A stretch of 64,000 bases of DNA, from positions 4,261,735 to 4,325,734 of the forward strand of contig OY811988.1 in the NCBI GenBank assembly GCA_963681505.1, read 5' to 3'. The stretch comes from Eunapius fragilis (lineage: Eukaryota; Porifera; Demospongiae; Spongillida; Spongillidae). Of this stretch, positions 12,783 to 57,728 are shown piece by piece. A model generated the notes under the pieces. That model was not told the DNA's origin and did not search any database. It saw only the letters and a program-made list of their open reading frames with translations. Position numbers and translations under genes: made by a program. Numbering within the stretch: position 1 is the first letter of the stretch; each line of letters opens with the position of its first letter.

Positions 12783-13226
12783 CTACAACAGTTTTACATA
12801 TATTGAGCCACATATATCTTCCAATGGAATTTTGCTGCAATTCGAGAGCAAAGCGGAACCATCTAATGATGGGATGTACGCCGGACACACCGTAATCAAT
12901 TCAGCAACCTGCATGTACATGGAGTAATATGTCGTCAAAGCACTGATCAATGCACACAACGTCTAGCTTACCCATTTGCATAAATCGCTCTGTATGCCAG
13001 ACTTGATGCCCTCCATGGCTGTTTGGTTGCAGGCGCTTCTAGGTGGACAATGCGCTATTGTTCCTTCTAGGTACCAGAGAGACTGACACACCATTTTCAC
13101 AATGGTTGCAGCATTGAGCTTGGTGTTGGAATCGCCGCAATTAATGCTCCGTTTTTGCGTTGGGTAACATGTCACAACTACGCCTCCCAAAAAGCATAGA
13201 ACGAGAAGAGTATTGAGAGAAGCCAT
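12783..13226 (-). CDS. Secreted 8-cysteine peptide precursor, subfamily A (intact, two exons)
   Basis: Exon 1 is 13226-12972, intron 12971-12909 (63 bases, GTAAGC...ATGCAG), exon 2 12908-12783; the product is 126 residues. Residues 1-20 form a hydrophobic signal peptide, followed by YPTQKR, a possible dibasic processing site. Cysteines lie at 30, 47, 60, 66, 83, 93, 109 and 118, and the core SLWYLEGTIAHC spans 49-60. An N-glycosylation sequon (NQT) is at 67, and the tail is EDICGSIYVKLL. The intron is phase 0 directly after Trp85. A TATA-like element lies about 60 bases upstream of the ATG. Function is unknown: probably an extracellular or venom-, defence- or signal-type small disulfide protein, but I recognise no family. 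The gene model is strong because six paralogues share this exon structure. Confidence 0.82.
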
Positions 13227-13239
13227 AACTGCACTTCAC

Positions 13240-14560
13240 TATATGTATAAGCCGCGTGGATGATGTGTAATATGCAATGTGATGGGTTTTTATAATAACG
13301 TCTGTGTGCATGAATTGTTGAGGAATCAGCTGGCATCCATTGTACCCACGCGTTTTGGATCATTTAATAATCTGATCCGGTACATACTTGACTTTGTTAT
13401 TTACTCTACAATGCATAACGTTACTTAGCAACTCTGACATAACTTTAGGAAGTGAATACGTTCCTTCTGACTTCATTTTTATCCGTTTCCACGCTACATA
13501 CAACCCTTCAGCGTATATGATCTCTACCTTCAGCCAGTCGTCGCTTAATTATTCTGATGTGAGTGCTTTGCTAAGCCGATTTGCAATCGTTGCCTTGGAA
13601 AGGGACGCAACACCATATTATCACGAAGAAAATCAGAGTTGCAAGCCAAATAATTGCTAGAAAGATTTAAGGGTTTCTCGGATCATTTGTATAATTGCAT
13701 TCACATCAGTACAATTTAATAGGCAGCGTACTATACAAGGTAACTAACATATAAGTGAAGTTTCTAAGCAACGCAAAGCATTGTACCTAATCGTGCGGGA
13801 GATGGCTCTACAACTCAAACGAGAGCATCATACAAGGCGCATGCACTACATATAACTATAACAACCATAATTATTAGCGAATCATGCACATCATTAGTGT
13901 TTTAAACTCATCAACGGCTTAAATCAAGCATTTTGTTCGAAGTGGATGTGGTTGCAGGTGCTGCAGCTAGGCAAACAGAGGAGAGAAAACACAAATTTAA
14001 TTATCCATCTACTCCGAACTGTGTTCCACTAGTGGTGGAAACATTTGGGTATAATTTGGTCACCTTGCAAAGTATCTGACTATTAAATGATATATATTTG
14101 AATGCAATTATACAGCTGAATTTCTTTAATTGTGGAAACCGCATATCTTTCATTATTTGTCTTTCCACTTTGATTTTCTTCGTAGAAATATCACGTTGCA
14201 TGCGTTCCTTTCCAGGGCAGCGGTCGCAAATATAATAATGGCTTTGCAAGTACTCATGCGATTTTTCCATGGGAATAATGAAATGACGACTGGCTGAAGG
14301 CATGGAGATGGGCTTCCTTTGTAAGTACCCACGCGTTATGCATCGTTTGATAATTTGATTAGGTACTGATTTTGTTATTCATCTCCATATGCGTTACTTT
14401 ACATAGAAACTCTGACATAACTCTAAGAAGGGAGTAAGTTGCTTCTGACTTCAATTCCATCCGTTTCCACGCTACATACATATCTCCAGCATATATGAAC
14501 TCGATCCCACAATTCATGCACACAGACTTAGTCGTATTACACACCATAAAAGTATGGTGA
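13240..14560. repeat. Inner palindrome between divergent subfamily-A copies, unit 1
   Basis: The minus-strand gene at 13226 and the plus-strand copy at 14576 lie head to head around a centre near 13.9 kb. Blocks on the left (13660-13780, TGTATAATTGCATTCAC) recur inverted on the right (14040-14165). A GTACCCACGCGTT...TCTGACATAACT block (13340-13520; 14325-14520) recurs in direct orientation. The open frames here are not conserved as proteins. No other gene is supported. Confidence 0.6.
13287..13298 (-). promoter_or_regulatory. TATA-like element of the subfamily-A gene
   Basis: Minus-strand TTATAAAAACCC, about 60 bases upstream of the ATG. The same TATAAAAACCCATCACATTG block precedes the copy at 16444 but is missing upstream of the copy at 14576. 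Confidence 0.6.
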
Positions 14561-14575
14561 TTCAGAAGTGCAGTA

Positions 14576-15011
14576 ATGCCTTCTTTCAATGTTCTTCTCG
14601 TTCTATGCTGCTTGGGAGGCGTAGCTGTGAAGTGTTATTCAATGCAAAAACGGAGCATTAATTGCGGCGGTTCCAACGCCAAGCTCAATGCTGCAACGAT
14701 TGTGAAAATGGTTTGCCAGTCTCTGGAACCTAGAAGGAACAATAGCGCACTGTCCAGCTAGTAGCCTGCAACCAGACAGCCATGGAGACTATCAAGTCTG
14801 GTATACAGATCGATTAATGCAAATAGGCTAGACGTTGTGTGCATTGATCAGGGCTTTGACGACTTATTACTCCATGTACATGCAGGTTGCTGAATTGATT
14901 ACGGTGTGTCCGGCGTACATCCCATCATTAGACGGTTCGGAATTGCTCTTAAATTGTAGCAAAATTCCATTGGAGAATATGTGTGGCTCAATAGATGTAA
15001 AACTGTTGTAG
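14576..15011 (+). pseudogene. Broken subfamily-A peptide gene, copy 2
   Basis: Starts MPSFNVLLVLCCLGGVAVKC followed by YSMQKR and the first cysteine, like the intact gene. The reading frame is lost around the SLWYLEG core, the splice donor after exon 1 is altered, and the upstream segment carrying the TATA-like element is absent. The exon-2 region (about 14886-15011) is still open and ends GSIDVKLL, with a preserved acceptor (ATGCAG). It is the plus-strand partner in palindromic unit 1. Not expected to make the peptide. Confidence 0.75.
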
Positions 15012-15044
15012 GAACATGAAATTTGTATAGCTAAAGTGCAGTGT

Positions 15045-16440
15045 AAAATGTATAAGCCGCGTGGATGGTGTGTAATATGCAATGTGATGGGTTTTTATAA
15101 TAACGTCTGTGTGCATGAATTGTTGAGGAATCAGCTGGCATCCATTGTACCCACGCGTTTTGGATCATTTAACTTAATCTGATTCGGTTCATACTTCATT
15201 ATTTTATCCATCTCCATATGCGTAACGTTACTTAGCAACTCTGACGGCATAACTTTAGGAAGTGAATTCGTTCCTTCTGACTCCATTTCCACTCTTCATG
15301 CAACCCTTCAGCATATATGATCTATACCTTCAGCCAGTTGTCGCTTAATTATTCTGATGGAAATACGGCACGAGTGCTTTGCTGAGCAGTTATTGGATTT
15401 GCAATCATTGCCTTGGAAAGGGACGCAACACCATATTTCTACGAAGAAAATCAGAGTTGCAAGCTAAATAATTGCAAGACAAATAATGAAAGATATACGG
15501 GTTCCTCAATTCAATTGTATAATTGCATTCACATCAGTACAATTTCATAGGCAGCGTACTATACAAGGTAACCGAAGTGTATCACATATAAGTGAAGTTT
15601 CTAAGCAATGCAAAGCGGAATCCGACGTTGTACGGAATCATGCGGGAGATGGCTCTACAACTCAAACGAGAGCATCATACAAGACGCATGCACTACATAT
15701 AACTATAACAACCATAATTATTAGCGAATCATACCCATTTTTAGTGCTATAAACTCATCAACGGCTTAAATCAAGCATTTTGTTCGAAACGGATGTGGTT
15801 GCAGGTGCTGCAGCTAGGCAAACAGAGGAGAGAAAACACAAATTTAATTATCCATCTACTCCGAACTGTGTTCCCCTAGTGGTGGAAACATTTGGTTATA
15901 ATTTGGTCACCTTGCAATGTATCTGTCTATTAAATGGTATATATTTGAATGCAATTATACAACTGAATTTCTTTAACCGCATATCTTTCATTATTTGTCT
16001 TTCAGCTCTGATTTTCTTCGTAGAAATATCATGTTGCATGCGTCCCTTTCCAAGGTAACGTTCGCAAATATAATAATGGCTTTGCAAAGTACTCATGCGG
16101 TTTTTCCCTCGGAATAATTCAATGACGACTGGCTGAAGGCATGGAGATGGGCATCCTTTGTAAGTACCCACGCGTTACTGATGCATCGTTTGATAATTTG
16201 ATTCGGTACTTGATTTTGTTATTCATCTCCATATGCGTTACTTTACATAGAAACTCTGACATAACTCTAGGAAGGGAGGAAGTTGCTTCTGACTTCAATT
16301 CCATCCGTTTCCACGCTACATACATCTCTTCAGCATATATGATCTCGATCCCACAACAATTCATGCACACAGACTTAGTATATAAAAACCCATCACATTG
16401 CGTATCACACACCATAAAAATATGGTGATTCAGAAGTGCA
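15045..16440. repeat. Second subfamily-A palindromic unit, left gene lost
   Basis: Direct copy of 13245-14560. It begins exactly in the promoter region of the minus-strand gene (TGTATAAGCCGCGTGGATG) but has no gene to its left, so the tandem duplication or a later deletion removed it. It carries its own internal inverted repeat (15485-15575 against 15895-15990). No independent gene is seen. Confidence 0.65.
16379..16387 (+). promoter_or_regulatory. TATA-like element upstream of the copy at 16444
   Basis: TATATAAAA followed by ACCCATCACATTG, the same block as upstream of the intact minus-strand gene. About 57 bases before the ATG. Confidence 0.5.
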
Positions 16441-16443
16441 GTT

Positions 16444-16863
16444 ATGCCTTCTTTCAATGCTCTTCTCGTTCTATGCTGCTTGGGAGGCGTAGCTATGACG
16501 TGTGACCCAATGCAAAAAAGGAGCATTAATTGCGGTGATTCCAACACCAAGCTCAATGCTGCAACGATTGTGAAAATGGTGTGCCAGTCTCTCTGGTACC
16601 TAGACGCACTGTCCAGCTAGTTTAGCGCCTGCAACCAGACAGCCGTGGAGAGTATCAGTCTGGTATACAGATCGATTTATGCAAATAAGCTAGACTTTGT
16701 GTGCCTTGATCAGGGCTTTGACGTCCATGTACATGCAGGTTGCTGAATTGATTACGGTGTGTCCGGCGTACATCCCATCATTAGATGGTTCAGCTTTGCT
16801 CTCGAATTGCAGCAAAATTCCATTGGAGGATATATATGTGTCTCAATATATGTAAAACAGTTA
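16444..16863 (+). pseudogene. Broken subfamily-A peptide gene, copy 3
   Basis: Starts MPSFNALLVLCCLGGVAMTC, with the KR site and the SLWYLD core. Exon 1 is interrupted soon after the core, and exon 2 (from 16739) loses frame near its C-terminal EDI motif. The promoter block is better kept than in copy 2. It is the inverted partner of the intact gene at the palindrome scale. Likely a recent pseudogene, because most of the codons still read. Confidence 0.75.
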
Positions 16864-16869
16864 TAGGAA

Positions 16870-17375
16870 CATGAAATTTGTATATTCTATCGACTGTCCG
16901 TGCAAATGAATGAGATACTATAAGAGCTCCCAGTACGAGTTCATTGAACATTCATTCATGGATTTTAGGGCTCCACCCACTGCTTATTACTGTAATTACA
17001 TTAGCAAACACGTAAGCATGCTAGCGAAGCGGATGGGAAGGCAGAGCAGGACTTAGACTGTTGATGCATTCATCAATGTATATGCGAAGTAATTGGATAG
17101 TCGACGGGATAAGATCAAGCCTCCTCTAACTTGGCAAAATGAAAAGCTACACAACTTGTTTTACACCACCTATGCGAGTTGATGAAAAGGCGCCGGCCCA
17201 TGATTGATTCATACAACGGCTTTCCTTTTTTTTAATGCCGTGTCTTAGTCTCCCTGAGAGATAGCTCTTTTCTTATATCCACATCGTTAAAAAGTTTTTT
17301 TTTTTTTTTTTTTTTTTGTAGCATAGGGTATATGGCCCATTTCATTCTAATAGCGCCGCTTCAAGTCTAACTGAT
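16870..17375. repeat. Right outer palindrome arm
   Basis: Inverted counterpart of 12532-12782 followed directly by the counterpart of 86-330. Here the two blocks are contiguous, which defines the pre-insertion state of the left arm. It contains a run of about 23 T near 17297. No gene. Confidence 0.7.
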
Positions 17376-17403
17376 CAACAATGGCTAAGGTAAATACTTT
17401 AAT

Positions 17404-18113
17404 TCAGTACAATAAACACAACATATAGTATAGTTTCAGTGCTGCATGCTTGCAGGCAAGACAGTTAAGTTGACGTCCTGAAACCTCAGATTTATTGGGG
17501 GCATCATCGTTTATAGATCCACTTCTTGCCAAATCACCCACAACACTGTTGAAATGCACGTGCATGTTTATGTCAGCGTTAAGCTCGTTGCTACCGTAAT
17601 TATCGTATACCTCTCTCATGCGGTCAATTATTCAATAGGACACGTATCAATGCGGGGCGTAGAAAGGGGTCGGCAGGCCGTTCAATTAGCCTGGATATCA
17701 CATAAAATGTGATCTAGAACATTTACTTTTCTGTCTCAAAATTTGGGTGCATCTTGAGAAAGATCTCCACCGCTGTGTCGTAGGATGTGCGTAATGAAAT
17801 TCATAAGTGCTATCATAGAGGACCTTAGCCAGTTTCTCAGATAGCGTAAGGTAGAAAAGCTTCTCTCGCAGATGCAACTAGTAATTGGAAGTGCGCAACC
17901 AATTTTTTATCAAGCGGAAAATACTAGGAAAACGCTCTTATCACAGCTGATTAGTGCCGATGCAAGAGTTTCCGGACGATCAATTGGTGAACATACGGAC
18001 GATTTTCGCTTGCAAAGTCCTAACTCCTGGTTCACATGATACTTGCCGATAAGATCATCTTCATAAATACCAATAATGTTGTTTACATCGCTATTGAACT
18101 CATCCTGAACCAC
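17404..18113 (-). pseudogene. hAT-superfamily transposase remnant (C-terminal part)
   Basis: Minus strand. Around 17806-17879 the sequence reads CERSFSTLRYLRNWLRSSM, the signature of the hAT C-terminal dimerisation region. Just upstream is IFRLIKNWLRTSNY, the usual lead-in. Earlier pieces lie at 17910-18113 (MVQDEFNSDVNNIIGIYEDD and on) and a later piece at 17404-17619 (INMHVHFNSVVGDLA). The frame is broken between pieces (an in-frame stop just before the CERSF block, then frame changes), so it is not functional. The N-terminal zinc finger and the catalytic centre were not found. A related fragment lies inverted at 28190-28620. Confidence 0.75.
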
Positions 18114-18115
18114 AA

Positions 18116-18431
18116 TTGATGGTCACGGCGCGACAGTGTACCGTATGCAGTCCTGTATATTACGCCTATCTTGGTCGCCACGCGTCTGCACTCAACACGT
18201 GGGCAGTTTTTCACACGACTCTTATGCAGGGTCTGTATACGTCTCAGAACGAACACCTCGCTTATACGCAGATATCGCGGTCTGCATACGGCTTCGGCAT
18301 ATTGGTTGTCACCTGTCTGCATACTTAATATGAATGTATGCAGACTCTGTGCACGTCGTGTATTCGAATCCTTTACAATGCGCCCATGGATCTGCATAAC
18401 TGAAGATATACCAGGACCTGTATACGCGGTA
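18116..18431. other. Degenerate TCTGCATACG-type repeats next to the Ginger-like element
   Basis: Words such as GTCTGCATACG, GTCTGTATACG and TATGCAGACTC occur many times on both strands, so the area is rich in short inverted pairs. Frames are open on both strands without recognisable protein. It borders the left target repeat of the transposon. Confidence 0.4.
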
Positions 18432-18435
18432 TATA

Positions 18436-18515
18436 TGTTACGGCCCGATTTAAAACTTTTGACCCGCTTTAAATCCGGTCGACCGGCTTTAAAACCGGTC
18501 AATTAATTTTATCCA
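18436..18515. repeat. Left terminal inverted repeat
   Basis: Begins TGTTACGGCCCGATTTAAAA and continues into CCGGTCGACCGGCTTTAAAA. The first 21 bases match the right end exactly; the rest matches imperfectly through CCGGT(C/T)GACCGG units. Confidence 0.8.
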
Positions 18516-21924: not shown

Positions 21925-22806
21925 ATGGCGAACGAGAGCGAAGAAGTTGGAGCCACTCGGACAACTCAGCTCGAAAGGGTGGCCGCGTCCGTTGGCGCTA
22001 GTCGCCCTCTCGTTTCGCCTGATTCTTTCTCAGGTCTGTCTAGTTGGGCGGAGTGGATAGACCATTTCGAAGCCGTTGCTTTGGTGAACGGTTGGGACGA
22101 CGAAAAGAAGCGGTTGTGGTTGCCAGTGCGACTAACAGGGAAAGCGCAGACAGCGTGGAAGCGACTTTCCTCGGAAACCAAAGATGACTACGAAGCAGCA
22201 AAGGAAGCGTTACAAAAACGTTTCGAGCCAGAAAGTAAGCGAAAGTTGTATTTTGTTGAATTTCAGGCCAGGAGACGCAAGAGAGATGAGTCTTGGGGTG
22301 ATTTCGCAGACGAGCTACGGGTCCTGGCTGAAAAGGCTTTACCAGAGCTGGACGATAAAGCAAAAGAATTGCTTGCTCTCGAGAGATACCTAGGTGAGCT
22401 TGATAACCCTCAGGTTGCATTTGCTGTTCGACAGCGAGAGCCGAAAACTGTCGACGAAGCTGTCACCGCGACGCTGGAGATACAGTCCTATCTCCGCCCG
22501 GGATTGCGACAAGAGCTCAATGCATCAGCGGTCGCAGAGGAAGCAGAAGCCCACAGTATTTCCGTCACGTCTTCCAGTGGTAGCGGACAGGACGCGGTGG
22601 TAGAAAGGCTGAAAGCATTAACAGAGCGGCTGGAAAGGTTGGAAACTTCGTTAAGGGGAACGGTGGCTGGCAAGAGACCAATGCGGACGACTGGTACAGG
22701 TGGTGGGGGCGGAAGTAAGCGAATTGTATGCTACAGATGTGGGCAGGTGGGCCATATCGCAAGAAACTGCGCTGCTGAGGGCAAATGCTCGAAGCAGGGA
22801 AACTAG
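21925..22806 (+). CDS. Gag-like region of the nested LTR-kin fragment
   Basis: 293 codons, beginning MANESEEVGATRTTQLERVA just inside the primer-binding-site-like sequence. The middle has SWAEWIDHFEAVALVNGWDD and WLPVRLTGKAQTAW, typical of retrotransposon capsid domains. Near the end a CCHC zinc knuckle is visible (CYRCGQVGHIARNC). In the family this protein forms the particle shell and packages RNA. It is part of an incomplete fossil element. Confidence 0.8.
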   Translation: MANESEEVGATRTTQLERVAASVGASRPLVSPDSFSGLSSWAEWIDHFEAVALVNGWDDEKKRLWLPVRLTGKAQTAWKRLSSETKDDYEAAKEALQKRFEPESKRKLYFVEFQARRRKRDESWGDFADELRVLAEKALPELDDKAKELLALERYLGELDNPQVAFAVRQREPKTVDEAVTATLEIQSYLRPGLRQELNASAVAEEAEAHSISVTSSSGSGQDAVVERLKALTERLERLETSLRGTVAGKRPMRTTGTGGGGGSKRIVCYRCGQVGHIARNCAAEGKCSKQGN

Positions 22807-23260
22807 AACCCCTCACCACTAGGGACCAAGTGCATGAGGGACTTAATACAATGGTCCATTGTAGTTTAGCAATAAACCCCGCATCATCACCTTGTATAAC
22901 AGCCTGTGTGAAAAATAAGATTGTTAAATGCATGGTTGACACTGGCGCCACAGTGAGTCTATTTAAGAAGACGGCTTGGAGCCAGCTGGAGGGAGTCAAC
23001 TGTAGCCTAGCACCGTGGGAGGGACACAAATTGGTTGGTGTGGAAGGTAGCCCTGTTTCAGTATGTGGTGTATCGACGTTGCAATTGGACATTGCTGGTA
23101 CAACTTTTGTGTCTGACTTTGTTGTTGTTGATATGCTCGGTGTAGATTGCATCGTTGGATCAGATTTTCTGAAGAAATATGGAGGCGTCATTGACCTGTC
23201 AAAGAACACCCTTCAATTCAGAAATGTTATGGTACCACTGGAGGAGGTGACAAGAAAGAC
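22785..23260 (+). CDS. Retropepsin-like region of the nested LTR-kin fragment
   Basis: Overlaps the end of the Gag-like region by 22 bases in another frame, as is common in gag-pol arrangements. It has the aspartic protease signature VDTGATVSL and a later VGVDCIVGSDFLKKYG-type segment (the ILG.DFL equivalent). The open frame continues to 23486 into sequence that resembles Ulp1 rather than pol. Fossil. Confidence 0.75.
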
Positions 23261-23289
23261 CAGCTCGAACCACACCAACAGCATCAATG

Positions 23290-23940
23290 CTACTCAATGC
23301 CTCCTTAAAAGCAAGTATGGTACACCTGGTCTCCAGAACCCACTACTAACTACAGCACACCAGGATAGTGTTGTAGGTGGAGAAAAATTTGTTCAAGTTC
23401 TGAATTCTGGTGGAAACCATTGGCTAGCCATCTCTACTATTGTTTGTCCCTATTCAACAGTCAACATTTATGACAGTATGTGTTGACTATACCGGATTCA
23501 ACACATGTACAAAAGCAGATATGTGCACTACTTAAGTCCCATGAACCAACGTAAGACTACGTTTTATCAATGCTGATAAACAGAAAAATGGAAATTCTGC
23601 GGACTTTATGCATTGGCATTTTGCGCAGCTCTCTGTGCTGGAATTGAACCACAGCATATTACATTTTCTAAGACCAACATGCGAAAACATTTGTTGCAGT
23701 GCTTTACACTAAATGAAATGGAATTCCTGGCGAGAAGGTGACAAGAAAGAAGAAAGTAAAGGAGACAGTGATGTTTGAAATAATCTGCACATATTGGGGC
23801 ATAGAGGGTGGTAAAATGGTTGAATGTGAAGTTTGAAAGGAATGGTTCCATCAAGGATGTTTAACAGTCCCTCAAAGTGTTTGTAAAAAAACCTTCAGCA
23901 ACATGGATGTGTCATTCATGCAAGAAGTAGAATCAATTCA
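23290..23940 (+). pseudogene. Ulp1-like protease and PHD-finger regions of the Ginger-like element
   Basis: LQNPLLTTAHQD and GGNHWLAISTIVCPYSTVNI carry the His of the C48 (Ulp1) protease fold, and YDSM follows as in relatives. Downstream, CGLYALAFCAALCAGIEP matches the catalytic Cys region. Around 23775-23935 a PHD-like set is visible (KMVECEV, EWFHQGCLTVPQSV). These C-terminal domains are known in Ginger1 elements. The region is broken. Confidence 0.65.
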
Positions 23941-30921: not shown

Positions 30922-31323
30922 TCATAACAGTTGGACATAAATGGATCCGCATATGTCTTCCAATGCCATGTTGCTACAACTGCTGGTCGATGGAATTAAT
31001 GTTGGACATTGTTGAGCTACCTGTACGGATCAGGAGTTGCATAAACGACGGTCATTAGAAATTATTTTAAGCAATCTTACCCATACACATAAATTGCTCT
31101 GAATTGCTGATTTGATTCCAGTCAGAGCAGTTTGGTTGCACGCAGTTCCATTTGGACAATGGGCAATAGTTCCCTCCAAGTACCACAGCGACTGGCATAT
31201 CAGCTTCACAGTCGTCGAAGTTATAGAATTGCTGCAATCAACGTCACGATTGTGAAGAGGGTGACCCAAGGCACCTCCTACCAGGATGAGAACCAAAGTA
31301 GTTACATGGAAAAGTGGAGACAT
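30922..31323 (-). CDS. Secreted 8-cysteine peptide precursor, subfamily B
   Basis: Exon 1 31323-31081, intron 31080-31021 (60 bases, GTAAGA...GTACAG), exon 2 31020-30922; 113 residues. The signal peptide is MSPLFHVTTLVLILVGGALG, then HPLHNR. Cysteines at 30, 43, 56, 62, 79, 86, 96 and 105. The SLWYLEGTIAHC core and sequons NGT (58) and NQT (63) are present, and the C-terminus is EDICGSIYVQLL. This copy has Val80 where its relatives have Leu. It lies in segmental-duplication copy A and is the orthologous position of 57327-57728. The TATA-like site is about 57 bases upstream. Secreted, function unknown. Confidence 0.85.
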
Positions 31324-33134: not shown

Positions 33135-33850
33135 CTAGGGCCTTAGGGCGGATACAGGAATTCTGGAATCGAATAATAAATAGGCGGGAGGTACGGAAAG
33201 TGTTTGCGCGGGAAGCATTTGGGGACCCGCACTTCGTTGCGCTCGTTTTAGCACTGGTAACAATGGCTTCCCCGTTCAAATTGTCGCCATCGCATACCGT
33301 AACCACGTATGCGTTAATTTATACTCATAGTGATACGTTAGTTCGGTTGGGTTCCCGTCTGCCTTGCTCGTCTGATTGCAGCATCAATCCATATGCTCGA
33401 TTGAGTTGTATATCGTAGAATGGCTGTCCCCCTGAGGTAATGTCCTCTCGAACATATCATATACATTATACCTCAGGTAATATTATCTGTTCCCACCCGT
33501 CCCCCCCCCCCCCCCCCCCCCCCCCCCCACGCGAAAGTTCCTTGATAATACTTTAATTAGTCCGGATATTACACTTCTCGCCAGGGATCTGAGAGTCAAT
33601 AAGGCTTGTTGAACGTCCAAGCCCTTGTGCGGATGGAAGAGATGGTTGCACCATTGGGTCTATGGGAGCATTTTGTTCTTGATCTACATCACATGGTGGT
33701 GTAGCAGCAACTATTGGTAATGGATCATCTTTATCTGTCAGTTCAGCATTGCCTTGTGGAGTACCTCTTTCCACAGTCCTGACCCTCACGATCTGTTCCC
33801 CCACTAACACACAAGCACACACACACACCCACACACACCACACATGCACA

Positions 33851-33929
<79 letters not shown>

Positions 33930-34310
33930 AATTCTGGAATCGAATAATAAATAGGCGGGAGGTACGGAAGGTGTTTGCGCGGGAAGCATTTGGGGACCCG
34001 CACTTCGTTGCGCTAGTTTTAGCACTGGTAACAATGGCTTCCCCGTTCAAATTGTCGCCATCGCATACCGTAACCACGTATGCGTTAATTTATACTCATA
34101 GTGATACGTTAGTTTGGTTGGGTTCCCGTCCGCCTTGCTCGTCTGATTGCAACATCAATCTATATGCTCGATTGAGTTGTATATCGTAGAATGGCTGTCC
34201 CCCTGAGGTAATGTCCTCCCGAACATATTATATACATTATACCTCAGGTAATATAATCTGTTCCCACCCCCGCCCCCACCCCCACCCCCACCCACCCGAA
34301 TGTTCATTGA
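33135..34310. repeat. Internal tandem duplication around the GGAATTCTGG block
   Basis: The ~390-bp block GGAATTCTGGAATCGAATAA ... CCCTGAGGTAATGTCC occurs at 33158-33540 and 33928-34310, and once in copy B (59907-60305). Each block is followed by a C-rich tract and part of an exon-like minus-strand frame. The second junction falls directly at the end of a (CA)n tract (33806-33927), suggesting the microsatellite took part in the rearrangement. Confidence 0.75.
33553..33830 (-). CDS. Possible 3' exon of an unidentified gene
   Basis: Minus-strand frame reading GEQIVRVRTVERGTPQGNAE, then ELTDKDDPLPIVAATPPCDV and ending PGEKCNIRTN stop. It is preceded by a (TG)n stretch ending in AACAG, which could serve as an acceptor. 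Pro/Asp-rich and unrecognised. In copy B the frame ends earlier at the sequence AQGL. Low confidence that it is translated. Confidence 0.25.
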
Positions 34311-38650: not shown

Positions 38651-38850
38651 NNNNNNNNNNNNNNNNNNNNNNNNNNNNNNNNNNNNNNNNNNNNNNNNNN
38701 NNNNNNNNNNNNNNNNNNNNNNNNNNNNNNNNNNNNNNNNNNNNNNNNNNNNNNNNNNNNNNNNNNNNNNNNNNNNNNNNNNNNNNNNNNNNNNNNNNNN
38801 NNNNNNNNNNNNNNNNNNNNNNNNNNNNNNNNNNNNNNNNNNNNNNNNNN
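38651..38850. other. Assembly gap (200 N)
   Basis: Exactly 200 unknown bases, probably a scaffold gap of estimated or default size. Confidence 0.98.
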
Positions 38851-40326: not shown

Positions 40327-40334
40327 TATATAAT
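40327..40334 (+). promoter_or_regulatory. TATA-like element of the 40404 gene
   Basis: GGGGTATATAATTAC, 70 bases upstream of the ATG, preceded by CCCACGTTAG as in the paralogues. Confidence 0.6.
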
Positions 40335-40403: not shown

Positions 40404-40805
40404 ATGTCTCCTCTTCTTTATGTAACTACTTCGGTTCTCATCCTGGTGGGAGGTGCCTTGGGTCACCCTCTTCACAAACGTGACGTTGACTGCAGCAACG
40501 TTAAAACTCCGACGACAGCGAAGCTGATATGCCAGTCTCTTTGGTACTTGGAGGGAACTATTGCCCACTGTCCTAATGGAACTGTGTGCAACCAAGCTGT
40601 TCTGACTGGAATCAAATCATCTATTCAAAGCAATTTATGTTTATGGGTAAGATTACTTGTAATAATTCTTAATGACCGTCATTCATGTAACTTTTGATCC
40701 GTACAGGTAGCTCAACAATGTCCAACATTAATTCCATCGACCAGCAGTTGTAGCAACATGCCATTGGAAGACATATGCGGATCAATTAATGTGCAGCTGT
40801 TATGA
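40404..40805 (+). CDS. Secreted 8-cysteine peptide precursor, subfamily B (KR form)
   Basis: Exon 1 40404-40646, intron 40647-40706 (60 bases), exon 2 40707-40805; 113 residues. The signal peptide MSPLLYVTTSVLILVGGALG is followed by HPLHKR, so this is the only B copy with a true dibasic site. All eight cysteines are at the standard positions (30, 43, 56, 62, 79, 86, 96, 105). The first sequon NGT is kept; the second reads NQA and is lost. The tail is EDICGSINVQLL, with Asn instead of Tyr. It is the only plus-strand intact member, and the most diverged of the B group. Secreted; function unknown. Confidence 0.86.
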
Positions 40806-44884: not shown

Positions 44885-45560
44885 GATAATAATGTGCTCA
44901 CCTCATGCTGTCATGTGCTCACCTCATGCTGTCATCATGTGCTCTCCTCATGCTGTCATCATGTGCTCACCTCATGCTGTCATGTGCTCACCTCATGCTG
45001 TCGTCATGTGCTCACCTCATGCTGTCATGTGCTCACCTCATGCTGACATCATGTGCTCACCTCATGCTGTCATCATGTGCTAACCTCATGCTGTCATGTG
45101 CTCACCTCATACTGTCATCATGTGCTCACCTCATGCTGACATGTGCTACCCTCATGTTGTCATTATGTGCTAACCTCATGCTGTCATGTGCTCACCTCAT
45201 ACTGTCATCATGTGCTAACCTCATGCTGTCATGTGCTCACCTCATGCTGTCATCATGTGCTAACCTCATGCTGTCATCATGTGCTCACCTCATGTTGTTA
45301 TCATGTGCTCACCTCATGCTGACATGTGCTACCCTCATGTTGTCATCATGTGCTAACCTCATGCTGTCATGTGCTCACCTCATACTGTCATCATGTGCTA
45401 ACCTCATGCTGTCATCATGTGCTCACCTCATGCTGTCATGTGCTCACCTCATGCTGTCGTCATGTGCTCACCTCATGTTGTTATCATGTGCTAACCTCAT
45501 GCTGTCATGTGCTCACCTCATACTGTCATGTGCTCACCTCGTACTGTCATCAGGTGCCTG
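44885..45560. repeat. 21/24-bp minisatellite
   Basis: About 30 units of TCATGTGCTCACCTCATGCTG, with or without an extra TCA. Both unit lengths are multiples of three, which keeps a 218-codon frame open (44905-45561). I regard the frame as a by-product. Confidence 0.9.
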
Positions 45561-46993
45561 ATGAAGATGGTTTGGTATTTAATGCTAGCATTCCTACTTA
45601 CCCTAATCACCTAATAATGTCTACTAAACCACATCACATGATCTTAACACTCACCTTGCATGCACACACATGCGCACACACATACACACATACACACATA
45701 CACACACATACACACACATACACATACTTGAAGAAGTTGCCAAGGGGTAATACACTCACACAGTTGGTGGGATGGCTGCTTTGCCACACCCCATGATGAG
45801 GCTACCATGATGCATGTAGCCACAGTCTTGATAACTGGGGCACTCCTGCCAAAGGGGAGGGTTGGTGGACTAACTGTGGGCTGTTAGCACTGAAGTTTGA
45901 TTGCTTTGGTGTCACTCTGAAGTTTTTATAGTTCACTGTGTGATGTTTAGTCAGTGCCAAATAGACCCAGGCAGCAATATGTTTTGGTGCCTAGCTGTGT
46001 AGGGCTTTCATTGTTCTGTGAACATTCTTACATGTAGTGGTTGTATTGAAGGACCTTTTGGGAGGATATTGGCATGTGTGCAGCTACATACATAGGGTAC
46101 GCATGTGTGTGTATCTGTCTGCATGTCACTAGGAGAAGAAAGCACAATTCTGTCAAGATGTGTGTATGCATGTGTCTGCATTTTATACCAGTATGTGCAT
46201 GTGCATCCACATATGTTTACAATTGTCTGTACGTGCTTATATCTGTGTGAGTAGGTGAAGATGCTTAGAATGTGGTTTGAAAGAGGCGAATGTGATTTTG
46301 GAGCATTCAGAATGAAAATGTTTAGCTAGAGGCTTGGCGCTTGGAGGTGGCACCAGTATTACTGCCATTTAGTAGCTGAGTGCACTAAGAATCTATCCTT
46401 CTCAATAGTCTTCATCCAAATTGTATGTATGGTATGTTTGCATGGTGTGATATCTTTAAATGATATATTTTCACTCTGATAGGATCAAGCCTTACATCAA
46501 TTGAATGAATCAAATAAAGTGGCAGTCCCTGGTGTGCATCTAATAGAGTCATGTTCGTAGGTGTGCATCAAATAGAATCATGTTAGTGGCCAGACCAGGT
46601 ATTGTAATACAGTCTTGTGTACATCAAATAAGTCATTTCTAAGTTGCTTTTGAAACCCCACTCTGAGCAGAACAAATACAGTGTGTACGAGGCTTCTTGT
46701 CAAATGAATGTAACGCGCATGCGTAGACTCTTCAAAGCCGCATGCATATATGGCGTCATCGTCGGGAAATCTACTGCAACTATAACCGTACGTTCCTATC
46801 ATCCAGAAGAAATATCTTAGGTGGGTCTTCAAGTAAATTGAGGGACTAGTGGCTAATTCCCAAGTCTCTCCTCTAACAGGTCCCCGAGAAACGATGAAGT
46901 CATGTCGTCACAGCAGAACCTACATGTACATGTATATCGATACTAGTACGATGATGACGAAGAAGACCGCGCCAAACCCTAGGTCCTAGGCAG

Positions 46994-48229: not shown

Positions 48230-48631
48230 TCATAACAGTCGGACATAAATGGATCCGCATATGTCTTCCAATGCCATGTTGCTACAACTGCTGGTCGATG
48301 GAATTAATGTTGGACATTGTTGAGCTACCTGTACGGATCAGGAGTTACATGAATGACGGTCATTTAGAATTATTTCAAGCAATCTTACCCATAAACATAA
48401 ATTGCTTTGAATAGATGATTTGATTCCAGTCAGAGCAGTTTGGTTGCACGCAGTTCCATTAGGACAGTGGGCAATAGTTCCCTCCAAGTACCACAGAGAC
48501 TGGCATATCAGCTTCACTGTCGTCGAAGTTTTAGTATTGCTGCAATCAGCGTCACGATTGTGAAGTAGGTGACCCAAGGCACCGCCCACCAGGATGAGAA
48601 CCCAAATAGTTGCATGGAGAAGTGGAGACAT
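48230..48631 (-). CDS. Secreted 8-cysteine peptide precursor, subfamily B, array copy 1
   Basis: Exon 1 48631-48389, intron 48388-48329 (60 bases), exon 2 48328-48230; 113 residues. The signal peptide is MSPLLHATIWVLILVGGALG, then HLLHNR. All eight cysteines, the SLWYLEGTIAHC core and both sequons are present. C-terminus GSIYVRLL (Arg where others have Gln). First of three near-identical genes in a 1.64-kb tandem array, all on the minus strand. The TATA-like site is about 50 bases upstream. Nearly identical to 49868-50269, suggesting very recent duplication or gene conversion. Confidence 0.86.
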
Positions 48632-49867: not shown

Positions 49868-50269
49868 TCATAACAGTCGGACATAAATGGATCCGCATAT
49901 GTCTTCCAATGCCATGTTGCTACAACTGCTAGTCGATGGAATTAATGTTGGACATTGTTGAGCTACCTGTACAGATCAGAAGTTACGTGAATGACGGTCA
50001 TTTAGAATTATTTCAAGCAATCTTACCCATAAACATAAATTGCTTTGAATAGATGATTTGATTCCAGTCAGAGCAGTTTGGTTACACGCAGTTCCATTAG
50101 GACAATGGGCAATAGTTCCCTCCAAGTACCACAGAGACTGGCATATCAGCTTCACTGTCGTCGAAGTTTTAGTATTGCTGCAATCAGTGTCACGATTGTG
50201 AAGTAGGTGACCCAAGGCACCGCCCACCAGGATGCGAACCCAAATAGTTGCATGGAGAAGTGGAGACAT
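49868..50269 (-). CDS. Secreted 8-cysteine peptide precursor, subfamily B, array copy 2
   Basis: Exon 1 50269-50027, intron 50026-49967 (60 bases), exon 2 49966-49868; 113 residues. The signal peptide is MSPLLHATIWVRILVGGALG, with an Arg in the hydrophobic stretch that may weaken it. Then HLLHNRDTDC. The eight cysteines, both sequons and the GSIYVRLL tail are as in array copy 1, from which it differs by only a few residues. A secreted peptide of unknown role. Confidence 0.84.
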
Positions 50270-51542: not shown

Positions 51543-51944
51543 TCATAACAGTTGGACATAAATGGATCCGCATGTGTCTTCCAATGCCATGTTGCTACAA
51601 TTGCTGGTCGATGGAATTAATGTTGGACATTGTTGAGCTACCTGTACGGATCAGAGGTTACATGAATGACGGTCATTTAGAATTATTTCAAGCAATCTTA
51701 CCCATAAACATAAATTGCTTTGAATAGATGATTTGATTCCAGTCAGAGCAGTTTGGTTGCACGCAGTTCCATTTGGACAATGGGCAATAGTTCCCTCCAA
51801 GTACCACAGAGACTGGCATATCAGCTTCACAGTTGTCGAAGTTTTAGTATTCCTGCAATCAACGTCACGATTGTGAAGAGGTTGACCCAATGCATCTCCC
51901 ACCAGGATGAGAACCAAAGTAGTTGCATGGAGAAGTGGAGACAT
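51543..51944 (-). CDS. Secreted 8-cysteine peptide precursor, subfamily B, array copy 3
   Basis: Exon 1 51944-51702, intron 51701-51642 (60 bases), exon 2 51641-51543; 113 residues. The signal peptide is MSPLLHATTLVLILVGDALG, then QPLHNRDVDC. Eight cysteines are conserved. Exon 2 has NCSNMALEDTCGS, so Ser95 is Asn (a possible new NCS sequon) and Ile104 is Thr. It is the most diverged array member, in keeping with its more diverged spacer. Confidence 0.85.
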
Positions 51945-52013: not shown

Positions 52014-52179
52014 GGCAGTGTGGGAAGATTCGCGATGAATAATCTTAGTGGAATTCACGTCTCTGGTGCAGGAAGTTATGTGCCAACGGAATGTATTCGC
52101 AGAATTTATTTTATTATGTAGCTGCATAGTGGTAACGGAACCGTTCTGTGGTACCATACAGTACACGTTTCCATGGCTA

Positions 52180-52910
52180 TAGCTTTCTTTGATGGGATAT
52201 TTGAAGTATTTAATTTATACAAAGAAGTACTTTTTTCGTGAGCACTGATTTATGCCAGTTGATATTATTGGGACGACCCGACCATATGAACAATTGCCGT
52301 TACGACTATATTAAGTTACCACTATTCATTCTCGTCCCCAGACCACATGATGTATGCGATTATTGCTGTAAACTACACCACCGTTTACAATGATATTACA
52401 TCATGTGCGTGATTAATATTAAGTGGATCACGTTGTAATTACCCAAGCTGAGGTTTTACTATTATTCTCCATAGAACTATCAACATTCGCCTTGAAACAA
52501 TACTGAGGAATAATTTTAATGTAATGGTATACATATTTGGTATCGGTACTATTGATGAGAATGTTGTTTGATTCCCATTAATGCTAGACTTGATGCATTG
52601 GAGTTCGGATACCAGAAGCATAGTAACTACAATCATGCATTGCGTGACTATGGCTGGATTGTCACTTTGTCTCCTAAGTAGATCCAAATGATACTTTGCT
52701 AATTAGTTAAGTATTGTAGAATTGTATGATTGGTGCAGTTTGGCTACAGCAGTTATAAACCTGCATTGTCCAAACATTAGCTGGAATTAACTGACGATTT
52801 CGATTATTTTCAATTATTTCAATAATTGAGTGCTTACTTTTAATTTCCATTTTGGTAAACGTTCATAGCCTTTAGCTTTCATTGTTTTAATTATTCCGCC
52901 TGGTATCATT
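52180..52910. repeat. Partial fourth array spacer, then anonymous sequence
   Basis: 52185-52690 resembles the start of the spacer units (GATGGGATATTTGAAGTATT, GTCCCCAGACCACATGATGT) but is diverged and has no following peptide gene. 52700-52910 shows nothing. Confidence 0.6.
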
Positions 52911-52924
52911 ATCGTGGCAAATGG

Positions 52925-54508
52925 TTTACTAAGTAAACTTTAGCGGAATGCTTGTGGACCACCGTGAAGAGATTTTTTTTAGAAAAATTGATCTCTACCA
53001 TAGGTAAATGTATTTCCCTGACGCCAGGAATAAGGTCATACTCTTCTTTCCACGACCGAGTTGACGGTACCGGCGTAACATAAATATGTATATCCGGTGC
53101 TTGTTTATTTTGTTTAAACGCCACAACATGCTAGATACAACATTCCATGCATAAGACAGACTCTTAGACTAGGTACGCATCAAGAACGTACTATACCTGG
53201 AAATGCATGCATGCGAATAATCGAGTAAATAGTTCAATGAACGTCGTACTAAATCCCGGGAACTCAAGATCCATGTAATGCACCTTGTCTCGCAGTATTG
53301 TTGTGGTGTCCCGTTACTAGCGTTAGTGTGCTATAATTTTTGTTAAGCAAACAGCGCGGCTTAACAGCAGGTAAATGAAATCAGACTGAGTGTATTTCTT
53401 GCTTTGTGCAACTTTCCTAAATATGCATTCATGTTAATCTACCAGTGTACAATAACATGCATGCATGTATGCACACAGCATGCTTATATAGATGCACGCG
53501 CATGTAAAGACATATACATACATGCACAGCACACAACACCCCCCCCCCCCCCACACACACACACACACGCACAACAACACACATCCGATAACCAGTGATG
53601 CCGCGGCCAGCAATATACGATACGGTCACGTTGATGGCCGGCCGGATTTTGTCCCGACGGTCACGATCGTGGTCAAAGGCTGACCGCCACTTAGCAATAC
53701 GGTCACGTACACGGCCTGGCCGGCAGCCGTCTATCTTCAATGCGGTCACGGACGGTCACGGCTTTACAGCCTTTAGGCATTTATAATACGTCATTGCGTA
53801 ACAAAAAGTTATTTAACCCGCGGTTTACGACAGATGCGGGGAAATATTGGGGAATATATCATATTCATAATTCCTTTTTCTAAAGCTAAATATGTTTAAT
53901 AATACTCCAATCATTATAGATGAAATTGGAAAAGTAAAGAATCAGCAGGCATATACAATTGTCGTATTGTAACCTTTAAAAGCCATTATAGTTTTAACGA
54001 TGTGCCTCAGCATTCAAGGTACAGTTCCGATATACACTATAGCCTATACTTAATAAATGGATGCAAAAGCGAATGTTATAAGAAACAATTTTATACACCG
54101 AAAACCAATACAGTGGTATAAGTAGTGCGATCGACCAGGAATTGCATAGAAAAACAAAGGGCACCTGGCGCAGCATGTTTGCGGAATTGTCCGACAATAC
54201 GAGCCTGTATATAACTCCATAGGGCAGTCGCAAATGCGTACTGAGCTTTAAATATGAAAAACTGCAAGAATGATCATTCAAACGACTAGGAGGGAATTAT
54301 TCCCCAAAATAATCAAGATTTCCCCGCGTCTGTCGTAAACCGCGTGTTAAAAAGTATCATAACAATCTGAGAGCTTTAATCGCGCTTTACAGGCTTAGTC
54401 ATGCAGTGGCAACAGCCTCGAGGCAAAATCCGGCCAGCCGTCAACGTGACCGTACCGCGTATATTGCTGGCCGCGGCATCACTGGTTATCGTATGTGTGT
54501 TGTTGTGC

Positions 54509-54539
<31 letters not shown>

Positions 54540-55145
54540 TTGTGTGTGCTGTGCATGTACGTATATGTGCTTACATGCGCGTGCATCTATACTGAAGCAT
54601 GCTGTGTGCATACATGCATGCATGTTGTTGTACAATGGTAGATTAACATGAATGCATATTTAGGCTAGTTGCACAAAGCAAGAAATACATTCAGTCTGAT
54701 TTCATTTACCTGCTGTTAAGCCGCGCTGTTTGCTTAACAAAAATTATAGACACTAACGCTAGTAACGAGATACCACAACAATACTGCGAGACAAGGTGCA
54801 TTACATGAATCTTGACTTCCCGGGATTTAGTACGACGTTCATTGAACTATTTATTCGATTATTCGCATGCATGCATTTCCAGGTATAGTACGTTCTTGAT
54901 GCGTACCTAGTCTAAGAGTCTGTCTTATGCATGGAATGTTGTATCTAGCATGTTGTGGTGTTTAAACAAAATAAACAAGCACCGGATACATATTTATGTT
55001 ACGCCGGTACCGTCAACTCGGTCGTGGAAAGAAGAGTATGACCTTATTCCTGGCGTCAGGGAAATACATTTACCAATGGTAGAGATCAGTTTTTCTAAAA
55101 AAAATCTCTTCACGGTGGTCCACAAGCATTCCGCTAAAGTTAACT
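52925..55145. repeat. Large palindrome, arms ~725 bp
   Basis: 52925-53650 is an inverted copy of 54425-55145. Both contain CATTCCGCTAAAGT, the GTACCGTCAACTCGGTCGTG block, CATGCATGCATT words, a C/G-run with a short (CA)n, and CCAGCAATATACG. The spacer is about 775 bases. The right arm borders segmental-duplication copy B exactly at its outer edge. Confidence 0.8.
53812..54351. mobile_element. 540-bp TIR element at the palindrome centre
   Basis: Ends are inverted repeats of about 35 bases containing CGCGGTTTACGACAGA.GCGG and GGAAAT. It is flanked by imperfect AAAAAGT repeats (8-9 bp), which could be a target duplication. The interior is AT-rich with no gene, though a minus-strand frame covers 53994-54281. 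MITE-like. Confidence 0.55.
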
Positions 55146-55321
55146 TAGTATTATTATTTGCCGAGAGTACAGCCATTAATAACCCATTAGAAGTCGCCTT
55201 TGACCTCGCCAACTTTCTCAACACCCATCTGCTGTGTATCCGTCAAAGAAGTAATACATATAGGAATGGCCCTCAGGTCCCAAGAGTGATACCCGACCAT
55301 ACAAGTTATGTAATGTATTGA
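54950..55321 (+). CDS. Open frame spanning palindrome arm and duplication B edge, unknown
   Basis: 123 codons. The first half (IHIYVTPVPSTRSWKEEYDL, IPGVREIHLPMVEI, KKNLFTVVHKHSAK) is also open in the inverted left arm (53124-52909). The second half (ESTAINNPLEVAFDLANFLN) matches 29015-29100 in copy A. Conservation of both parts suggests old coding exons, possibly of a transposon. The join coincides with the duplication breakpoint, so this exact protein is doubtful. Confidence 0.3.
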   Translation: MLWCLNKINKHRIHIYVTPVPSTRSWKEEYDLIPGVREIHLPMVEISFSKKNLFTVVHKHSAKVNLVLLFAESTAINNPLEVAFDLANFLNTHLLCIRQRSNTYRNGPQVPRVIPDHTSYVMY

Positions 55322-55969
55322 ATGATATGTCGGGAGAAAACCATCTACACTATTATATGACCGATGTCTCGACCGCGGATATTCAATGGGAGATTTTGCA
55401 AGAATTGAATGCCAATGTGCTCATTCGTGAATCATAATAGATGAGTTGATGCTACCGCTGCAAAATATATGTATATAATCATTAATATATATATATATAA
55501 ATTAAGCTTAGCAACAGCATAATAGCGCTCATAACCTTCCTTCAAAAAGGTGACGCTTTGTAAGAAGTTGCGAAGGACGCTGCACACGAGCGCCGATCGA
55601 TGTGAAAATACGTGTATAAAAGTTTTAGGATTCTTGTTTCTGCATGGCACTGCTTTCTAGTCATAGACGGGTAGAAAAGTAATTCTTAGTACTTGATAGC
55701 ACAGCATGCTAGATCGATCGCGCGATTTACTGTTCCAGTACAGTGTCACGTTATTTTCTAGTATTGCTCTTGAAACGGAGTTGTGCGTGTTTTAGTTCTT
55801 ATCCATCCTTAGTAGTAATACATACTGATGGCTGTTGAGAGGTGAGAGTGTCAATCATCACGTGACCTAGCAACAAGGTACTCTGCATGACAATAATAAA
55901 ACACAGAGATACCAAATATGCAATGAAATGAACAACTATAGCTGATCGTTAAATATTCACCGGGTTACT

Positions 55970-56240
55970 CGAACAACATTCTCCTCAACAGGCCGATAGC
56001 AGCGTTCCGTTTGACACTAAGTACCTGGGCCTGGCTACTTCAAACGTACTCTGAAATGTTTAGGTGAAATCTGAACTGATCCCGGGAATGATCTCAATTA
56101 CCGGAACTAGTTTCATGCGTAAGTATTCTAGAGCGCCACCATGTTTGCAGCAATTTCAGTCGCATGGCCGGCTGAAATTTTTGGTTCCGAAGCACCTCTG
56201 TCCTTTTATATGCAAAATCCTCCTTTTAAACAAACCGCGC
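55970..56240. other. 270-bp segment present only in copy B
   Basis: Copy A reads GGGTTACTC directly into ATCCTCGTATACGTAGGGAT; copy B has about 270 bases between the same phrases. No TIRs or target repeats are visible. Either a deletion in A or an insertion in B. Confidence 0.55.
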
Positions 56241-56514
56241 ATCCTTATATACATAGGGATAGGTTTGATTAGCAGATAACATTCTAATAAAATAATGCCA
56301 CCATCCCTTCATAAATGTAATAGTATCAACCAAATTGCTCCCCCCCCCCCCCCCCCCCCCCCCCCCCACAGTTGTTCGTATTGTGTAGACGGCTCGCACG
56401 ACACAACCTTTGTGATCAATGTCCGCGTAGTACTATATGTCCGCGTGTTATTTAACGTCAATTGACTTAATTTTTACATGATACGCAGAAGCGTTCACGG
56501 TTGCGGAGATAGTC

Positions 56515-57033
56515 ATGTTTAATCAGGAGCCATTTATTTTTCAATGGGGGGCAGAAAGGGAAGGGATTTATATCAACACTAGTAAGGGAAGACCGCACGC
56601 ACAGATTACACATGTTGATAGTGGTTTATATGTATTGGTGCCCGTAATTAAGGTTTGCGTTATCCGCCATAATCACAGCAAAAATGATCGCAAATCAAAA
56701 ATACAATTGATTGACCGTGTCAGGATGTGGGTGCATAATCTATCATTAATTAAAATTAATCCACATGTTATATATGAGTTCAGCCTGTTAATAGTGGCAC
56801 ATGCGCCTTGTGTCGCGATGGTAGCACGCTACCTTAATCCCCCGCGGGGCACGTTTGTCCTCCAAGGGGCACAGAAAACAAAATGTTGTCAATTATTCAG
56901 TTCAGCTTTCCCAGTGACGTTTAATGGATTTGCCTCATTGTTCAAGTTCTTATCTGTTTGGGCCGAAGTTTCAAAGCACTATCTTCTTTGCAGCAGCTCG
57001 TTTCAGCCAAACCACCCGGATGCGCAAATGTGA
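56515..57033 (+). CDS. 172-codon open frame, unknown
   Basis: Begins MFNQEPFIFQWGAEREGIYI; later SGLYVLVPVIKVCVIRHNHS, RVRMWVHNLSLIKINPHVIY, VARYLNPPRGTFVLQGAQ and SVWAEVSKHYLLCSSSF. The longest non-repeat frame outside the transposons. The copy at 30120-30632 is only partly open. No domain, signal peptide or conserved start context recognised. It could be a gene or a chance-preserved element frame. Confidence 0.35.
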   Translation: MFNQEPFIFQWGAEREGIYINTSKGRPHAQITHVDSGLYVLVPVIKVCVIRHNHSKNDRKSKIQLIDRVRMWVHNLSLIKINPHVIYEFSLLIVAHAPCVAMVARYLNPPRGTFVLQGAQKTKCCQLFSSAFPVTFNGFASLFKFLSVWAEVSKHYLLCSSSFQPNHPDAQM

Positions 57034-57326
57034 CATTATATACTAGAACAAAGTCTGAACTAAACTGAACTATTCTGATTTGCAAGAATAATAATAGAAA
57101 ATCTTGAATTTATGTATATACACGTGTTTCTTTGATCTGTAGGATGCTTGCTATTGACTGTCATTTATTTGCTAAAGTGTACACAGATACACATTATCCA
57201 CCGATGAAAGGAACAAAAAAGAATAGTTCAGTTCGGTTCAGATATTGTTAATTAGGGTATATCATTACTTCATTACTAATCTTAGGCTCGAATAAACTTT
57301 ATACCAAAATCGCGACACATGAAGTT

Positions 57327-57728
57327 TCATAACAGTTGGACATAAATGGATCCGCATATGTCTTCCAATGCCATGTTGCTACAACTGCTGGTCGATGGAA
57401 TTAGTGTTGGACATTGTTGAGCTACCTGTACGGATCAGGAGTTACATAAACGACGGTCATTAGAAATTATTTCAAGCAATCTTACCCATAAACATAAATT
57501 GCTCTGAATTGCTGATTTGATTTCAGTCAGAGCAGTTTGGTTGCACGCAGTTCCATTTGGACAATGGGCAATAGTTCCCTCCAAGTACCACAGAGACTGG
57601 CATATCAGCTTCACAGTCGTCGAAGTTATAGAATTGCTGCAATCGACGTCACGATTGTGAAGAGGGTGACCCAAGGCACCTCCTACCAGGATGAGAACCA
57701 AAGTAGTTACATAGAAAAGTGGAGACAT
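57327..57728 (-). CDS. Secreted 8-cysteine peptide precursor, subfamily B (duplication copy B)
   Basis: Exon 1 57728-57486, intron 57485-57426 (60 bases), exon 2 57425-57327; 113 residues. The signal peptide is MSPLFYVTTLVLILVGGALG, then HPLHNRDVDC. All eight cysteines, both sequons and GSIYVQLL are present. It differs from its duplicate at 30922 by Tyr6/His6, Glu/Gly in TEIKSAIQ, and Leu80/Val80 among others. The promoter with its TATA-like site is duplicated with it. Confidence 0.86.

What the first reader, a model, noticed from the sequence alone, without database searches (positions are those of the whole stretch)
12783..57728. Unrecognised family of secreted 8-cysteine peptide genes, nine loci in 45 kb
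Seen: seven intact and two broken two-exon genes encode a signal peptide, a pro-like stretch, eight cysteines, an SLWYLEGTIAHC core and a CGSI tail, always with one phase-0 intron after a Trp codon. Spacing is C-x12/16-C-x12-C-x5-C-x16-C-x6/9-C-x9/15-C-x8-C. Inference: a fast-duplicating extracellular disulfide protein family, possibly lineage-specific, of a kind common in defence, signalling or reproduction. I know no named family with this pattern.
Basis: partly seen in the sequence, partly recalled or inferred. Interest (0 to 1): 0.82.

Follow-up and report, generated by a model that had tools for sequence, protein, structure and literature searches.

The report
Amplified secreted disulfide-protein genes in sponge
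A freshwater sponge carries about a hundred copies, in one stretch of one chromosome, of a small secreted cysteine-rich protein gene that matched no catalogued family; the genes look real and constrained, but what the protein does is not known.

Summary
In detail: nine loci (seven intact, two broken), two exons, phase-0 intron of 60-63 nt after Trp, eight cysteines with the stated spacing. The genome matches Eunapius fragilis, chromosome 18. The window is a small part of an array of about 100 loci on C18, 3.71-5.11 Mb, with no match at E<=1e-3 elsewhere. Of five subfamilies, C2 keeps only four cysteines, the set invariant in eight representatives. Purifying selection on the mature part (A1 pN/pS 0.27, bootstrap 0.16-0.46), a TATA box in 36 of 37 distinct upstreams (11% of random 90-mers) and a named protein (Em0002g469a, read as Ephydatia muelleri) joined at the same Trp support real genes. 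No significant Pfam, PDB-sequence or PDB-fold relative was found. I read it as dosage amplification of a secreted, helical, disulfide-locked protein; that role is inferred. Four loci beside an assembly gap may be artefacts.

The parts
12783..13226 (-). A2-type gene, intact, 126 aa: exon 1 13226-12972, intron 63 nt, exon 2 12908-12783
   Evidence: CDS identical to the copy at C18:4247074
14576..15008 (+). A2-type copy, broken: exon 1 continues in another frame after codon 50; exon 2 open at 14886-15008
15048..15151 (-). 104-bp piece of the A2 upstream region, 99% identical, no gene attached
   Evidence: blastn
16444..16852 (+). A2-type copy, broken: stop and gap in exon 1 (16444-16656), altered end of exon 2 (16739-16852)
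30922..31323 (-). A1-type gene, intact, 113 aa: exon 1 31323-31081, intron 60 nt, exon 2 31020-30922
40327..40332 (+). TATA box (TATATA) 77 nt before the ATG of the + strand A1 gene
   Evidence: a TATAWA in 36 of 37 distinct upstreams
40404..40805 (+). A1-type gene, intact, 113 aa: exon 1 40404-40646, intron 60 nt, exon 2 40707-40805
48230..48631 (-). A1-type gene, intact: exon 1 48631-48389, exon 2 48328-48230
49868..50269 (-). A1-type gene, intact: exon 1 50269-50027, exon 2 49966-49868; tandem neighbour of the previous one
51543..51944 (-). A1-type gene, intact: exon 1 51944-51702, exon 2 51641-51543
57327..57728 (-). A1-type gene, intact: exon 1 57728-57486, exon 2 57425-57327

Best explanation
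The nine loci belong to one gene family, about 100 loci on chromosome 18 of Eunapius fragilis, encoding small secreted proteins: a signal peptide of about 20 residues, a very short pro piece ending in a basic site, then a mature domain of 73-100 residues. The mature domain is predicted to be a helical hairpin held by a core set of four cysteines (C2, C3, C4, C8), with up to two further disulfides in most subfamilies; coordinated gain and loss suggests C1-C6 and C5 (or the extra cysteine of the C1-type CPxC)-C7. Most likely mechanism: TATA-driven genes in a secretory cell type release a stable extracellular protein, and tandem plus segmental duplication raises its dose, as expected for a bulk product (defensive secretion, mucus/mesohyl or gemmule-associated protein) rather than for recognition molecules that must differ. 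Shown: the loci, exon-intron structure, cluster, subfamilies, selection, TATA boxes. Inferred: splicing in this species, cleavage, disulfide pairs, bulk secretion and role.
For: Array in one stretch of one chromosome. Purifying selection: A1 mature pN/pS 0.27 (0.16-0.46), C2 exon-1 mature 0.21 (0.10-0.39). 17 distinct mature A1 proteins from 22 genes, mean identity 92%, so many genes make nearly the same product. TATAWA in 36 of 37 distinct upstreams against 11% of random 90-mers of the 4.235-4.445 Mb stretch. The external protein Em0002g469a joins at the conserved Trp. Two-helix exon-1 model, block pLDDT 66-83 from residue 31 on.
Against: No expression, localisation or proteomic data. B-type mature exon 1 shows pN/pS 1.0 on very few changes (pS 0.02). 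The C2 signal part is at 2.57, interval 0.86-7.39. A pure dose reading sits badly with the deep divergence between subfamilies (about 30% identity, cysteine loss), which points to more than one function. Copy number is uncertain: the 10.2-kb repeat at 99.96% is split exactly by a 200-N gap. The structure model lacks exon 2.
Confidence: 0.4

Rival explanations
1. Diversifying extracellular recognition or arms-race proteins (defence, allorecognition, gamete interaction).
For: Large clustered family with gene birth and death: in the fully read stretch 4.235-4.445 Mb about 9 of 36 loci are broken or not modelled as intact. Subfamilies differ in their cysteine sets.
Against: Mature part of A1 and C2 under purifying selection; core exact in 7 of 8 A-type relatives.
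Confidence: 0.15
2. A family of processed protein signals (cytokine- or pheromone-like ligands) acting through a conserved receptor.
For: Signal peptide, basic pro site (KR, NR, IR), compact helical domain, strong core conservation. Prohormone convertases are reported in a sponge (PMC6850559, abstract). The best PDB sequence match of one profile was interleukin-19, at a non-significant E 0.15.
Against: Signals rarely need dozens of near-identical genes (inference); no significant sequence or fold match to a known ligand.
Confidence: 0.2
3. An antimicrobial peptide family.
For: Small, secreted, cysteine-rich, multi-gene; a sponge ASABF-type antimicrobial peptide is in print (PMC3210614, search listing only).
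Against: Mature proteins are acidic to near neutral, -4.2 to +1.2; no C-x3-C or C-x-C in 42 of 42 models; no Pfam match.
Confidence: 0.12
4. A distant member of a known fold family that sequence methods miss, the nearest candidate being the TAZ-like C-x12-C-x5-C helical layout.
For: Profile A7 against PDB gives CBP TAZ1 at E 0.45 with C-x12-C-x5-C in register; similar at 0.28-0.33 with profile A1.
Against: hhalign against the sponge's own two TAZ domains: probability 0.2%; the zf-TAZ profile finds 3 matches, all on C19; the His ligand position holds Thr; the TAZ intron lies elsewhere.
Confidence: 0.08

Closest known systems
Em0002g469a (EukProt entry; id format read by me as Ephydatia muelleri)
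   Same: Signal peptide, HPIQRR pro site, C2-x12-C3-x5-C4 core, joined at the same Trp, C8
   Different: Six cysteines; closest to subfamily C (42-45% identity), 27% to the window's A1
ASABF-type / CSab antimicrobial peptides of sponges
   Same: Small, secreted, eight cysteines
   Different: No C-x3-C or C-x-C, predicted helical in exon 1, not cationic (definition recalled; paper seen only in a search listing)
TAZ zinc-finger domain (CBP/p300)
   Same: C-x12-C-x5-C with helices on both sides, CPxC in subfamily C1
   Different: Signal peptide, no His ligand at the tested position, hhalign probability 0.2%
Second secreted multi-gene family of the same sponge on C6 and C4
   Same: Signal peptide, KR pro site, ALxxI..V.NNSCAW followed by an in-phase GT
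   Different: Three exons in my reading, other Cys layout, hhalign probability 6.6%: kinship not shown

Membership tests
CSab / ASABF-type defensins | C-x3-C and C-x-C pair that staples helix to sheet (recalled) | tested here: not met
   Neither motif in 42 of 42 modelled proteins
CSab / ASABF-type defensins | Cationic mature peptide (common, recalled) | tested here: not met
   A1 net charge -4.2 to -0.2; over all subfamilies -4.2 to +1.2
zf-TAZ (PF02135) | Match to the family profile | tested here: not met
   No zf-TAZ match among 9 members scanned; profile search of the genome gives 3 matches, all on C19
zf-TAZ (PF02135) | HCCC zinc ligands with His four residues before the Cys (recalled) | tested here: not met
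   Thr, an invariant column, stands four residues before C3 (TIAHC)
Plant lipid-transfer / 8-Cys motif | CC and CxC within eight cysteines (recalled) | tested here: not met
   0 of 42 models with CC, 0 of 42 with CxC
Saposin-like, ShK, insulin and other catalogued secreted families | Pfam-A match | tested here: not met
   Best E 0.64 for one protein and 0.1 over 8 and over 9 members, none over a cut-off; fold-level kinship not tested for each
The family described here (for Em0002g469a) | C2, C3, C4, C8, Trp junction, signal peptide | tested here: met
   Alignments A5 and A7; E 7.5e-24 to a profile without it, 6.8e-40 to one containing it
The family described here | C-x12-C-x5/6-C core | tested here: met
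   47 of 47 exon-1 models and 25 of 27 database proteins; P0017 and P0027 lack it
The family described here | Disulfide connectivity | not testable with these tools
   Inferred only from coordinated gain and loss of C1, C5, C6, C7

The most novel reading that the evidence does not exclude
A freshwater-sponge-specific class of extracellular proteins with an undescribed disulfide-locked helical fold, amplified to about a hundred genes in one 1.4-Mb stretch of one chromosome and multiplied separately in another lineage; subfamilies shed half of their cysteines around a four-cysteine core. It would be a new protein fold and a dedicated secretory system tied to a freshwater sponge trait.
Probability: 0.25. 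Interest if true: 0.7.

Novelty: new member of a known kind. Interest (0 to 1): 0.45.

Why it matters
Lineage-restricted secreted proteins are often what makes a lineage biologically distinctive, and sponges have few characterised ones. Here is a large, well-bounded set with natural cysteine variants, TATA promoters and a relative that I read as belonging to a tractable species (Ephydatia muelleri), so expression, localisation and function can be tested directly. The array also shows birth-and-death evolution together with purifying selection, useful for separating dose amplification from arms-race expansion.

Tried and rejected
TAZ-like zinc domain: suggested by PDB matches at E 0.28-0.46, rejected on hhalign 0.2% and on the profile search. 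Kinship with the C6/C4 secreted family: suggestive Trp junction and ALxxIK...NxCxW, but hhalign 6.6%; left open. Off-chromosome hits of the B query (14 rows, E 0.005-0.75): one of six C10 rows was read and looks like fibronectin-type repeats (my reading); the five C6 rows are the family just named; the other C10 rows and the C19, C3 and C1 rows were not read; none was counted. Whole-protein model of P0003, intron read through: pLDDT 54, not used. Fold search with the exon-1 model: 87 matches at E<=10, 0 at E<=0.001. Phage collection: no match. Paper searches for such a family or for the E. muelleri gene id: no listed title or abstract start is about it; one passage describes tandem and segmental duplication in E. 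muelleri in general (PMC7385117). A first exon-1 pattern of mine found nothing because it was mistyped and was corrected.
Full report
Where it is. The window is C18:4261735-4325734 of a 218,937,333-base genome in 24 contigs. The total length, 23 chromosomes plus a mitochondrial contig, and the lengths of contigs 4, 6, 10, 18 and 19 (14.35, 10.49, 8.87, 6.26, 6.16 Mb) match the published assembly of the freshwater sponge Eunapius fragilis, odEunFrag1 (PMC12616128; passages including Table 3). The paper reports 26,614 genes; I could not see that annotation.

The observation. In the window the intron is 60 nt (A1) or 63 nt (A2), GT...AG, phase 0 after Trp. The cysteine spacing is as written.

Beyond the window. 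A degenerate 23-mer for the core has 29 exact hits in the genome, all within 178 kb of C18, none for the reversed pattern. Protein searches with three subfamily members gave 128 of 128, 103 of 103 and 101 of 115 matches on C18; the other 14, E 0.005-0.75, are on C1, C3, C6, C10 and C19. Merging the exon-1 matches at about E<=1e-3, copied by hand from those outputs, with the two broken copies of the window gives 100 loci between 3.708 and 5.108 Mb. Exon-2-only rows and weaker rows were dropped, so a broken copy at 4256632 and a fragment at 4462543 (E 0.016) are not in that number, while four loci may be assembly duplicates (below). The tool warns that such counts are lower bounds. Many of the 100 were not read, so how many are intact is unknown outside 4.235-4.445 Mb.

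Subfamilies. A1 (113 aa), A2 (126 aa), B (123-124 aa), C1 (116-118 aa, with CPxC) and C2 (99-100 aa). Twenty short stretches of B and C loci were fetched; the script modelled exon 2 in 17 of 20 and both exons in 16 of 20. Invariant positions across eight representatives include C2, C3, C4, C8 and the junction Trp. C-x12-C-x5/6-C is in 47 of 47 exon-1 models and 25 of 27 database proteins. C2 has only the four core cysteines and its splice site lies three codons further on. In C1, C5 is absent and a cysteine is gained in CPxC; in Em0002g469a C5, that cysteine and C7 are all absent while C1 and C6 remain. The simplest reading pairs C1-C6 and C5 (or the gained Cys)-C7 and leaves C2, C3, C4, C8 as the core. 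Two A2 copies carry a ninth cysteine.

Are they genes? In the stretch read completely (4.235-4.445 Mb) 33 loci keep the core motif; 26 are intact by script, and a B copy (4435743) that the script's exon-2 pattern missed looks intact by eye. Counting three more loci that have lost the motif, about 27 of 36 are intact. One of the intact ones (4372041) has Arg for the junction Trp. A1 mature pN/pS is 0.27 (bootstrap over codons 0.16-0.46; 19 distinct CDS), A1 signal/pro 0.63 (0.32-1.44), C2 mature exon 1 0.21 (0.10-0.39), C2 signal 2.57 (0.86-7.39). B gives 1.0 in mature exon 1 and 0.65 in exon 2, on few changes. A1 against A2 core: pN 0.149, pS 0.725; A1 against B core: pN 0.402, pS 0.647. Pairs are not independent; the bootstrap only resamples codons. 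TATAWA lies 30-120 nt before the ATG in 36 of 37 distinct upstreams; 11.2% of random 90-mers of the 4.235-4.445 Mb stretch have it. The database protein Em0002g469a, whose id I read as the E. muelleri gene set, is joined exactly at the Trp; whether that model rests on RNA reads is not shown here.

How the array grew. Self-comparison of 210 kb shows tandem steps of about 1.6 kb, inverted A2 blocks (96.7%) and about 21 kb repeated at a distance of 43 kb at 96-98%. The most similar repeat, 10.2 kb at 99.96%, is separated by exactly one 200-N gap, so four of the 100 loci may be an assembly duplicate. Tandem and segmental duplication is described as widespread in the E. muelleri genome (PMC7385117, passages). 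In the tree of 47 exon-1 proteins, 81 columns, the A1, B and C2 groups are each one side of a starred branch; three A1-like proteins from unnamed contigs form a clade beside all A1, one goes next to C, and one lies among the A2 copies with weak support. So the subfamilies seem older than the split from those sequences, while A1 expanded after it. Whose contigs those are is not shown.

What is it? No Pfam match; best PDB sequence matches E 0.15 (interleukin-19) and 0.28-0.46 (CBP TAZ1), not significant; no fold match at E<=0.001. The exon-1 model is a signal helix and two further helices (residues 34-52 and 61-82), mean pLDDT 68.2; it lacks exon 2. Relatives in a database of 5.8 billion proteins were 27 in all, two of them the window's own, one named. 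That search needs shared 5-residue words and its first look misses distant relatives.

Function. The best-supported reading is a dose-amplified, stable secreted protein. For it: many genes with near-identical products, purifying selection, TATA promoters. Against a recognition role: the conserved core. Against a classic antimicrobial: acidic to near-neutral charge and no CSab motif. None of this shows what it does; my confidence in the role is 0.4, and in a real secreted family about 0.95.

Novelty. The family is not in the libraries searched, and no listed title or abstract start in seven paper searches is about it (open-licence papers only). As a kind, lineage-restricted, tandemly expanded, secreted cysteine-rich proteins are well known; this is a new member with a large single-chromosome array and a marked loss of cysteines in one subfamily.

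Noticed in passing
window 21925-23486 (+): Two overlapping ORFs resembling retroelement gag (CCHC zinc knuckle) and an aspartic protease (DTGA), inside the array (my reading).
   Followed up: no
window 38651-38850: 200-N assembly gap between the A1 genes at 31 kb and 40 kb.
   Followed up: partly
G000:C18:4404732-4425281: 10.2-kb repeat at 99.96% identity split exactly by a 200-N gap: possible false duplication carrying four loci twice.
   Followed up: partly
G000:C6:1.73-1.83, 3.18-3.64, 5.49 Mb and C4:3.06, 3.26 Mb: Another multi-gene secreted family without a Pfam match (signal peptide, KR pro site, about 165 aa, three exons in my reading) with a junction after SCAW; kinship to the C18 family not shown.
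   Followed up: partly
window 3572-4186, 6132-6662, 33553-34189, 44905-45796: Long microsatellite and short tandem-repeat tracts that give spurious ORFs.
   Followed up: no
G000:C18:4372041: An otherwise intact A1 copy with the junction Trp changed to Arg.
   Followed up: no
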